The notes under the pieces were generated by a model, which worked only from the letters and a program-made list of their open reading frames with translations, was not told where the DNA came from and searched no databases. The translations under genes were made by a program, and so were the position numbers. Below, piece by piece: positions 17,523 through 18,469 of a stretch of 64,000 nt of DNA. How positions within the stretch are numbered: the stretch's first letter is position 1; the number at the start of each line of letters is the position of its first letter. Source of the stretch: Neisseria subflava (GTDB lineage: Bacteria; Pseudomonadota; Gammaproteobacteria; Burkholderiales; Neisseriaceae); the NCBI RefSeq assembly GCF_003044935.1, contig NZ_POXP01000001.1, forward strand, positions 62,001-126,000. The letters are read 5' to 3'.

Positions 17523-17568
17523 AAAACGTCGTCTGAAAACTTGAAAAATGGGTTTCAGACGACGTTTT
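17523..17568 (+). terminator. ettA terminator made of mucosa-dialect uptake sequences
   Basis: AAAACGTCGTCTGAAA and TTTCAGACGACGTTTT form the stem. The core is GTCGTCTGAA, not the GCCGTCTGAA used in nearly all other intergenic pairs of the window. Confidence 0.85.
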
Positions 17569-17647
17569 TGTTAAGCAGGGATTGTTCGGACGTTGCTTGT
17601 CTATCGGGTTGATTCATAATATATAACGCCTGTTGAAACAAGGAATG

Positions 17648-17690
17648 GGTCGTCTGAAAACGTGTGGTGCTTGTTTTCAGACGACCTTTT
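17648..17690 (-). terminator. mtrR terminator made of mucosa-dialect uptake sequences
   Basis: GGGTCGTCTGAAAACG pairs with TTGTTTTCAGACGACC. The right arm is a full AGGTCGTCTGAA on the minus strand. It lies 13 bp past the mtrR stop. Confidence 0.85.
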
Positions 17691-17702
17691 GTGTACGGTC
17701 CG

Positions 17703-18338
17703 TTATTTTTGCTTACGCAGTTGCGGGTGGTTTTTCAGATTGTCCAAGAGGATGTCAATCATGCGCGGTGCGGTTTGGGCAAGATCGAAACTTTTGTCGG
17801 ACGAGAGCCAACGCCAAATCAGACCGTCCAGCATCGATTTGATGAAGATAACCGCCATGTCGGTATCCAAATCTTCGGATAAGGCATGTTGGGCAATGGA
17901 TTTGGTCAGGACTTCGGTAATTTTCTCGCGCCAAATCGCTTGATGTTTATCCGCAATGTCGATGACGGCAGCGTTCTGCTCGGTGTGTTCGCATTTTAAA
18001 AACAGAATGCTGTGGAATTTATAGTGGATGTCGTTGGTTTGCAGGCGCGTGAAAAAGTGCATCAAGGTGCGGCGGAAAAGCGACCATTCTTGTTCATCGC
18101 TATCGGCCGCGTCCTGATGCATACAGTTTTCGATGTCGTCGCAAATGCGCTGGAAGAGGGCGTCGAACAAGTCTTCTTTGTTTTTGAAATGCCAGTACAA
18201 CGCGCCGCGCGTCACGCCGGCGGCCTGGGCGATTTCGTTGAGCGAAGTGCGCGCGATGCCTTTTTGGTAGAAGGTTTCCAGCGCGGCGAGCATGAGATGT
18301 TCTTTGGTTTTAAGGGCTTCGGTTTTGGTTTTCCGCAT
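17703..18338 (-). CDS. mtrR: MtrR, TetR-family repressor of the Mtr efflux pump
   Basis: Represses mtrCDE and other genes in pathogenic Neisseria. The 211-aa product begins MRKTKTEALKTKEHLMLAAL and has the TetR helix-turn-helix TSLNEIAQAAGVTRGALYWH at residues 31-50. A39 and G45, the positions altered in many resistant gonococci, are wild type. The C-terminal ligand-binding helices (KFHSILFLKCEHTEQNAAVI) are almost those of gonococcal MtrR, with most differences at 70-90 and 150-205. It is divergent from mtrCDE across a 236-bp control region. The flanking uptake sequences belong to another dialect, suggesting the locus was imported. Confidence 0.97.
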   Translation of the reverse strand: MRKTKTEALKTKEHLMLAALETFYQKGIARTSLNEIAQAAGVTRGALYWHFKNKEDLFDALFQRICDDIENCMHQDAADSDEQEWSLFRRTLMHFFTRLQTNDIHYKFHSILFLKCEHTEQNAAVIDIADKHQAIWREKITEVLTKSIAQHALSEDLDTDMAVIFIKSMLDGLIWRWLSSDKSFDLAQTAPRMIDILLDNLKNHPQLRKQK

Positions 18339-18371
18339 GATGCCTGTTTCAAGTTAAGTGGAATGTTGGGG

Positions 18372-18415
18372 ATTATAAAAAATACTTTGTATCCATGCAA
18401 TCATGTATGTATAAT
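18372..18415. promoter_or_regulatory. Overlapping divergent mtrR and mtrC promoters with the MtrR operator
   Basis: For mtrR (minus): TTGCAT at 18395-18400, 17 bp, TATAAT at 18372-18377. For mtrC (plus): TATAAT at 18410-18415 with a weak -35 (TTGTAT) at 18387-18392. The mtrR spacer contains the small inverted repeat ATACAAAGTAT, in the place of the gonococcal 13-bp repeat. CCATGCAATCATGTATG at 18393-18409 closely matches the gonococcal MtrR operator. The operator match is from memory. Confidence 0.75.
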
Positions 18416-18457
18416 GGCACTCGTAATTGAGATTGGCTCTCAAGTATAAAATAAATT

Positions 18458-18469
18458 TTCAGACGACCT
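18458..18469 (-). repeat. Single mucosa-dialect uptake sequence in the mtrC leader
   Basis: TTCAGACGACCT, the complement of AGGTCGTCTGAA, about 36 bp downstream of the predicted mtrC start. Confidence 0.85.

What the first reader, a model, noticed from the sequence alone, without database searches (positions are those of the whole stretch)
17523..18469. Uptake-sequence dialect switches around mtrR, pointing to import of the mtr control region
Almost all intergenic pairs here use GCCGTCTGAA. Every uptake sequence between the end of ettA and the start of mtrC instead uses GTCGTCTGAA (both arms at 17523-17568, both arms at 17648-17690, single at 18458-18469), two of them in the full AGGTCGTCTGAA form known as the mucosa/sicca dialect. 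The pairs after mtrD and mtrE return to the local dialect. Mosaic mtr alleles pass between Neisseria species and change efflux, so this looks like a recombinant tract seen from the commensal side, with likely ends inside ettA and mtrC.
Basis: partly seen in the sequence, partly recalled or inferred. Interest (0 to 1): 0.72.

Follow-up and report, generated by a model that had tools for sequence, protein, structure and literature searches.

The report
Borrowed mtr efflux-control DNA in Neisseria
A commensal-type Neisseria has replaced about 2.5 kb around the regulator of its Mtr efflux pump with DNA from the N. mucosa/sicca group, and the donor's uptake-sequence dialect still marks the borrowed piece; this is a well-known kind of event, here mapped closely.

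Summary
All five uptake sequences between ettA and mtrC read GTCGTCTGAA, against 2892 GCC and 131 GTC forms genome-wide. Compared with four sister genomes and the GTC-dialect (mucosa) group, one tract switches ancestry, from 16,771-16,976 in ettA to 19,413-19,431 in mtrC. Inside, 322 of 326 clade-diagnostic sites are mucosa-type; the flanks are almost wholly sister-type. Trees agree (AU p 3e-10 against sister placement inside; 1e-3 and 2e-7 against mucosa placement in mtrC 3' and mtrE). G019 has the same five uptake sequences at the same places. The tract holds mtrR, the promoter gap and two thirds of mtrC; mtrD and mtrE stay native. The donor is unsampled or mosaic. One mucosa-dialect genome, G024, shows the reverse import in mtrD. 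Mosaic mtr loci and stray mucDUS are published, so this is a new instance of a known kind. The motif alone is weak evidence: of five other GTC clusters tested, one looks imported, one is ambiguous, three do not. Effect on efflux and frequency in the species are untested.

The parts
16977..19412 (.). imported mucosa-type tract, minimal extent 2436 bp (maximal 16,771-19,431, 2661 bp)
   Evidence: 322 mucosa-type, 3 sister-type, 1 other among 326 diagnostic sites; trees
16771..16976 (.). left breakpoint interval inside ettA
   Evidence: last sister-type site 16,770, first mucosa-type site 16,977, no diagnostic site between
19413..19431 (.). right breakpoint interval inside mtrC
   Evidence: last mucosa-type site 19,412, first sister-type site 19,432
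15796..17496 (+). ettA (NCBIfam EttA 984 bits, cut-off 599); chimeric, its last part imported
   Evidence: 7 of 7 diagnostic sites sister-type at 15,796-16,770 and 12 of 12 mucosa-type at 16,977-17,496
17703..18338 (-). mtrR, TetR-type repressor (NCBIfam MtrR 338.7 bits, cut-off 280), wholly imported
   Evidence: protein 100% to G019, 99% G007, 97% G024, 93% G027; 77-78% to the three intact sister copies
18339..18574 (.). mtrR-mtrC gap, where the divergent promoters are expected; wholly imported
   Evidence: 99.6% to G027, 61.5% to G036; alignment; promoter content recalled from the gonococcal locus, not tested
18575..19852 (+). mtrC, periplasmic adaptor, chimeric: residues 1 to about 279 mucosa-type, the rest sister-type
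   Evidence: residues 1-279: 97.1-99.6% to the mucosa group, 82.6-83.3% to sisters; the rest: 79.4-82.3% and 94.5-98.6%
19864..23076 (+). mtrD, RND permease, native apart from a small patch
   Evidence: 243 sister-type against 14 mucosa-type sites with G019, G027, G007 as mucosa set
23115..24539 (+). mtrE, outer-membrane channel, native
   Evidence: 181 sister-type, 5 mucosa-type, 1 other; tree 100/100 with sisters
17526..17565 (.). inverted pair of ACGTCGTCTGAA after ettA
   Evidence: same pair in G019, G024, G027
17647..17687 (.). inverted pair GGGTCGTCTGAA/AGGTCGTCTGAA after mtrR
   Evidence: same pair with the same leading bases in G019
18458..18469 (-). single AGGTCGTCTGAA in the mtrR-mtrC gap
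   Evidence: present in 4 of 4 mucosa-group genomes, absent in 4 of 4 sisters
20544..20685 (.). small second mucosa-like patch in mtrD, possible separate event
   Evidence: 13 mucosa-type, 1 sister-type, 1 other diagnostic sites

Best explanation
A Neisseria of the AGGCCGTCTGAA dialect took up DNA from a member of the AGGTCGTCTGAA (mucosa/sicca) group and exchanged it by homologous recombination. The ends lie in ettA, which is conserved between the groups, and about 840 bases into mtrC. The exchange put in the donor's mtrR, the mtrR-mtrC gap and the first two thirds of mtrC, and left mtrD, mtrE and the rest of mtrC native. The five donor uptake sequences came as passengers where the sisters have one pair. 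Shown: the ancestry switch, both ends and the donor group. Strongly supported: the direction. Inferred: entry by natural transformation, and that the regulator came together with its own operator, so that repression of the pump stays matched.
For: Sliding identity at 17.3-19.3 kb: 85-100% to the mucosa group and 63-87% to sisters; from 19.55 kb the reverse. Diagnostic sites 322:3:1 inside; left flank 7 of 7, mtrC 3' 66 of 66 and mtrE 181 of 187 sister-type. Trees: tract in mucosa group 100/100, sister placement rejected p 3.1e-10; mtrC 3' and mtrE with sisters 100/100, mucosa placement rejected p 9.7e-4 and 1.8e-7; ettA 3' with mucosa 100/100, sister placement p 0.036; ettA 5' mucosa placement p 0.002. 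The five uptake sequences match G019 in leading bases and, within one base, in spacing; three sisters have one AGGCC pair after ettA, G036 one intact arm, and none of the four has any in the mtrR-mtrC gap. Of 101 pieces of 500 bases (1-50,500) against G036, only the four at 17,501-19,500 fall below 90%.
Against: The motif cluster alone is only p 0.014 in the window, and 3 of 5 other GTC clusters tested are not imports by the same comparison. Three diagnostic sites inside the tract are sister-type (17,686, 19,171, 19,177). ettA is so conserved that the left end rests on 7 + 12 sites; sites called against G036 alone are mixed from 15.85 to 16.95 kb, the ettA 3' AU test is only p 0.036, and G037 itself groups with the mucosa set in ettA 5'. 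No donor matches over the full length. Entry by transformation cannot be seen in the sequence; in N. elongata a mucDUS lowers transformation 35-fold against AG-DUS (PMC3630211, passage), so the path crosses a partial barrier.
Confidence: 0.95

Rival explanations
1. The four sister genomes, not this one, changed: they took mtrR-mtrC 5' from elsewhere and the window keeps the ancestral type.
For: The sister-type tract is not close to any other group sampled; it branches outside mucosa plus pathogens in the tract tree, 97/98.
Against: In mtrR and mtrC 5' the window is 95-99% like the mucosa group, but only 75-80% like it in mtrC 3' and mtrE. Plain shared ancestry does not give this jump inside one gene. 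The tract also carries the mucosa dialect.
Confidence: 0.02
2. The transfer ran the other way: the mucosa group took this control region from the window's species.
For: Identity alone has no direction.
Against: 4 of 4 mucosa-group genomes carry this type, 94-98% identical among themselves in mtrR, and with their own dialect; 4 of 4 sisters lack it.
Confidence: 0.02
3. The GTC motifs arose by point mutation in place, with no import.
For: One base separates the dialect cores; 3 of 5 other GTC clusters tested show no mucosa-type excess.
Against: The sisters have at most two motifs in this stretch and none in the mtrR-mtrC gap, so at least three of the five have no counterpart to mutate from; and the surrounding 2.4 kb is mucosa-type.
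Confidence: 0.01
4. A refinement, not exclusive of the best explanation: the tract is several overlapping imports, or one import from an already mosaic donor, not one event from a plain donor.
For: 17,542-18,117 is mostly G019-like and 18,346-19,397 mostly G027-like; small patch at 20,544-20,685.
Against: A single unsampled mucosa-group donor with both parts explains it as well, since that group recombines (G024).
Confidence: 0.4

Closest known systems
Mosaic mtrRCDE alleles of N. gonorrhoeae (PMC6083905; passages read)
   Same: Interspecies recombination replacing parts of mtrRCDE, including the mtr promoter region
   Different: There the recipient is the gonococcus, donors are N. meningitidis- or N. 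lactamica-like, and mtrD plus promoter together raise resistance; here the recipient is a commensal-type genome, the donor is of the mucosa dialect, mtrD stays native and nothing is known of resistance
Peregrine mucDUS in other-dialect genomes, with the folP region of N. subflava ATCC 19243 (PMC3630211; passages read)
   Same: mucDUS inside a genome of another dialect, read as transfer from the mucDUS group, including one 7 kb stretch with 7 mucDUS and 1 AG-DUS
   Different: In the passages read, the folP case is left open between import from N. sicca and a strain closer to N. sicca, with no mapped ends; here ends, donor group and trees are given
Mosaic penA in Neisseria (PMC10926701; search listing only)
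   Same: Interspecies mosaic of a drug-related gene
   Different: Other locus

Membership tests
Interspecies mosaic mtr locus | Part of mtrRCDE of other-species ancestry, with the rest native | tested here: met
Interspecies mosaic mtr locus | Breakpoints inside the locus or next to it | tested here: met
   16,771-16,976 in ettA; 19,413-19,431 in mtrC
Interspecies mosaic mtr locus | Changed mtrCDE expression or drug susceptibility | not testable with these tools
   needs transcript or susceptibility data
Peregrine mucDUS marking an import | mucDUS core in a genome whose main dialect differs | tested here: met
   131 GTC against 2892 GCC
Peregrine mucDUS marking an import | Surrounding DNA closest to the mucDUS group | tested here: met
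   for this tract; at five other GTC clusters of the genome 1 met, 1 ambiguous, 3 not met
Peregrine mucDUS marking an import | Same motifs at the same places in the donor group | tested here: met
   5 of 5 in G019 with the same leading bases
MtrR repressor | Passes the curated NCBIfam cut-off | tested here: met
   338.7 bits against 280
Natural transformation event | Entry of free DNA through the competence pathway | not testable with these tools
   inferred from what is known of the genus; no mobile-element search was made
Fixed trait of the species | Present in all strains | not tested
   the collections used hold one genome per species

The most novel reading that the evidence does not exclude
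The mtr locus is a two-way exchange point between two uptake-dialect groups, with modules that move separately. The control module (mtrR, operator, start of mtrC) went from the mucosa group into this AG-dialect genome, and a pump module (most of mtrD) went the other way into the mucosa-dialect genome G024, each carrying foreign-dialect uptake sequences. Selection on regulator-operator matching would favour such breakpoints.
Probability: 0.2. Interest if true: 0.5.

Novelty: new member of a known kind. Interest (0 to 1): 0.36.

Why it matters
Mosaic mtr loci matter because they change efflux in gonococci. This case shows the same locus trading between commensal-type groups across an uptake-dialect difference, with both ends mapped, so commensal-to-commensal reshuffling may build alleles that later reach pathogens. 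It also gives a caution: a foreign uptake dialect points to an import only when the surrounding DNA is checked.

Tried and rejected
Dialect switch as a stand-alone test. Eight GTC clusters or pairs of this genome, picked by hand from the place lists (the list is cut at 100 of 131 places), were fetched apart from mtr, four of them clusters of three or more and four chosen as pairs or small groups (L131-L138); five of the eight were compared with sister and mucosa genomes, L134, L136 and L138 were not. One (L132, G000:C2:120-134k, seven GTC motifs) has mucosa-type stretches at 122.5-124.0k (96% to G027) and 127.8-130.2k (92% to G007) where G036 has no good match; G036 was the only sister in that search. 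One (L131, C1:519-535k) is shared by both groups and stays ambiguous. Three (L133 C1:584-594k, L135 C1:141-148k, L137 C2:246-253k) gave no mucosa-type excess (only hits better than 1e-150 or 1e-60 were listed). So the motif alone would mislead in most places tried.

Sister finding by the gene at 11,795-14,053 failed: its DNA is 95-97% alike in 14 other genomes of several groups; mtrE was used instead.

A single donor was sought and not found. Rows dropped or limited: L001 and L002 are the same contigs as G024 and G027 (contig lengths). G007 has no ettA at this place and was left out of the main site counts. G022 and the pathogen-group rows served as outgroups only. Of 79 loci only the Neisseria ones named in the calls were used. 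A first count of sister-type sites (93 in the first run) includes DNA before ettA that is not homologous in the mucosa group; the report uses the 7 sites inside ettA.

Full report
What was claimed.

Observation. It is correct. Five of five motifs between 17,496 and 18,575 are GTC; two are the full AGGTCGTCTGAA. The pairs after mtrD and mtrE are AGGCCGTCTGAA. The genome (G000, 2.16 Mb, 9 contigs) has 2892 GCC and 131 GTC ten-mers, 90 of the latter as AGGTCGTCTGAA. In the window 7 of 95 are GTC, 5 of them here. With close arms counted as one unit the run of three GTC units has shuffle p = 0.014 in the window, and a rough count with an assumed 2000 units gives 0.16 such runs expected in the genome. 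The motif is a good hint but not proof.

Genes. NCBIfam names MtrR (338.7 bits, cut-off 280) and EttA (984 bits, cut-off 599). The other three pass only subfamily cut-offs: RND adaptor, RND permease and outer-membrane efflux subunit. The names MtrC, MtrD and MtrE rest on gene order and on the finding.

Comparison set. MtrR was sought in 46 genomes of the genus, the window's own included; all 46 match. Best are G019 (100%), G007 (99%), G024 (97%) and G027 (93%); then 80% and less. The stretches fetched around mtr in these four genomes use mostly the GTC dialect (L001 23 GTC to 3 GCC, L002 26 to 0). mtrE, sought in the same 46, gives another order: G014, G036, G025 and G037 are 95-96% like the window, the four GTC-dialect genomes only 80-81%. 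I call the first four sisters and the other four the mucosa group.

Ancestry switch. Identity in steps of 200 and 250 bases changes sides. At 17.8-19.3 kb the window is 90-100% like the mucosa group and 63-84% like the sisters. From 19.55 kb through mtrE it is 86-100% like the sisters (lowest at 20.3-20.8 kb) and 72-92% like the mucosa group, leaving aside G024 in mtrD (see below). At sites where all four sisters agree, all of G019, G024 and G027 agree, and the two differ: ettA 15,796-16,770, 7 of 7 sister-type; 16,771-16,976, none informative; ettA 16,977-17,496, 12 of 12 mucosa-type; 17,497-17,702, 15 mucosa, 1 sister, 1 other; mtrR, 111 of 111 mucosa; the mtrR-mtrC gap, 61 of 61; mtrC to 19,412, 123 mucosa, 2 sister; mtrC from 19,432, 66 of 66 sister; mtrD, 31 sister, 2 mucosa (243 and 14 if G007 replaces G024); mtrE, 181 sister, 5 mucosa, 1 other. 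The tract is 2436 to 2661 bases long. With G036 as the only sister the picture in ettA is less clean: sites are mixed from 15.85 to 16.95 kb.

Trees. mtrR to mtrC 5' (17,703-19,412; 15 sequences): window in the mucosa group, support 100/100; holding it with the sisters costs 83.9 log units, p-AU 3.1e-10. ettA 3' (8 sequences): mucosa 100/100, sister placement p 0.036. mtrC 3' (14 sequences) and mtrE (15): with the sisters 100/100, mucosa placement p 9.7e-4 and 1.8e-7. ettA 5' (8): window on the sister side (94/95, not starred), mucosa placement p 0.002; G037 itself groups with the mucosa set there.

Uptake sequences. G019 has the same five motifs with the same leading bases (ACG, ACG, GGG, AGG, AGG) and, within one base, the same spacing. 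G014, G025 and G037 have one AGGCCGTCTGAA pair after ettA, G036 one intact arm, and none of the four has any in the mtrR-mtrC gap. Two donor pairs and a single thus stand where the sisters have one pair.

Uniqueness in the window. Of 101 pieces of 500 bases from 1 to 50,500 compared with the fetched stretch of G036, ten are under 92% or short, and only the four at 17,501-19,500 are under 90%. From about 50.5 kb on the fetched G036 stretch no longer matches, so the last 13.5 kb were not compared.

Donor. No sampled genome matches throughout. From 17,542 to 18,117 the window mostly follows G019, from 18,346 to 19,397 mostly G027; in the ettA part the two alternate. This means a mosaic or unsampled donor of that group, or overlapping events. 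A patch of 13 mucosa-type sites (1 sister, 1 other) at 20,544-20,685 in mtrD may be a further small event.

The reverse direction. G024, of the mucosa dialect, has sister-type mtrD from about 19,881 to 22,790 in window coordinates, with mostly mucosa-type DNA on both sides; the mtrC side has scattered sister-type sites too. G024 carries TTGCCGTCTGAA in mtrD, as do the window, G014, G036 and G037; G025, G019, G027 and G007 have none there. So foreign-dialect motifs appear to travel both ways at this locus.

Meaning. The tract holds the whole regulator gene, the gap with both expected promoters and residues 1 to about 279 of MtrC. MtrR is 77-78% identical to the three intact sister copies; that of G036 is broken by a frame change. 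Regulator and operator came as one piece, so matched regulation is likely but untested. MtrC is a chimera: its first part is 97.1-99.6% mucosa-type, the rest 94.5-98.6% sister-type.

How general. Of five other GTC clusters or pairs tested in this genome (of eight fetched) one looks imported, one is ambiguous and three do not. Stray mucDUS should not be counted as imports without alignment.

Literature. PMC3630211 (passages) describes uptake dialects, stray 'peregrine' mucDUS read as interspecies transfer, lowered transformation by a foreign dialect, and a folP stretch with 7 mucDUS in N. subflava ATCC 19243, possibly from N. sicca. [quoted passage not shown] PMC8005064 (passages) reports that one base of the mtr promoter inverted repeat differed between N. 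subflava (10 of 10) and N. mucosa (3 of 3); I did not map that base to this window. PMC13340140 (passages) surveys 166 commensal isolates at listed mtr positions and calls DNA donation across species in the genus rampant despite uptake-sequence divergence; the passages do not treat the ancestry of the mtr control region. In my searches I saw no report of a mucosa-type mtr control region in an AG-dialect commensal; most of those papers were seen only as listings, and subscription journals are mostly not held.

Verdict. A confirmed recombinant tract, of a known kind, mapped closely. Interest is moderate.

Noticed in passing
L116/L117 (G024), window-equivalent 19,881-22,790: mtrD of a mucosa-dialect genome (contig named N. 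sicca C2010005502) is sister-type with mostly mucosa-type flanks and carries a GCC-dialect motif: probably an import in the opposite direction.
   Followed up: partly
window 20,544-20,685: Small mucosa-like patch inside otherwise native mtrD.
   Followed up: partly
window 11,795-14,053: A family 65 glycosyl hydrolase gene, next to a beta-phosphoglucomutase gene, is 95-97% identical in DNA in 14 other genomes of several groups, 80-82% in 3, matched only in a short piece in 1 and not at all in 27 of 46, although mtrE differs from the window's by 19-28% in the non-sister ones among the 14. An earlier count said 28 without a match; the call shows 27.
   Followed up: no
G036:C1:707999-708630: mtrR of this sister genome is split over two frames; the other three sisters have intact copies.
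   Followed up: no
G000:C2:120000-134000 (L132): Cluster of seven GTC motifs with mucosa-type stretches around 122.5-124.0k and 127.8-130.2k, probably another import.
   Followed up: partly
L183 (G037), ettA 5' part: ettA 5' of this sister genome groups with the mucosa set: perhaps another mosaic at the edge of mtr.
   Followed up: no
window 13,472 and 51,864: The only two other GTC ten-mers of the window; the first lies inside the glycosyl hydrolase gene.
   Followed up: no
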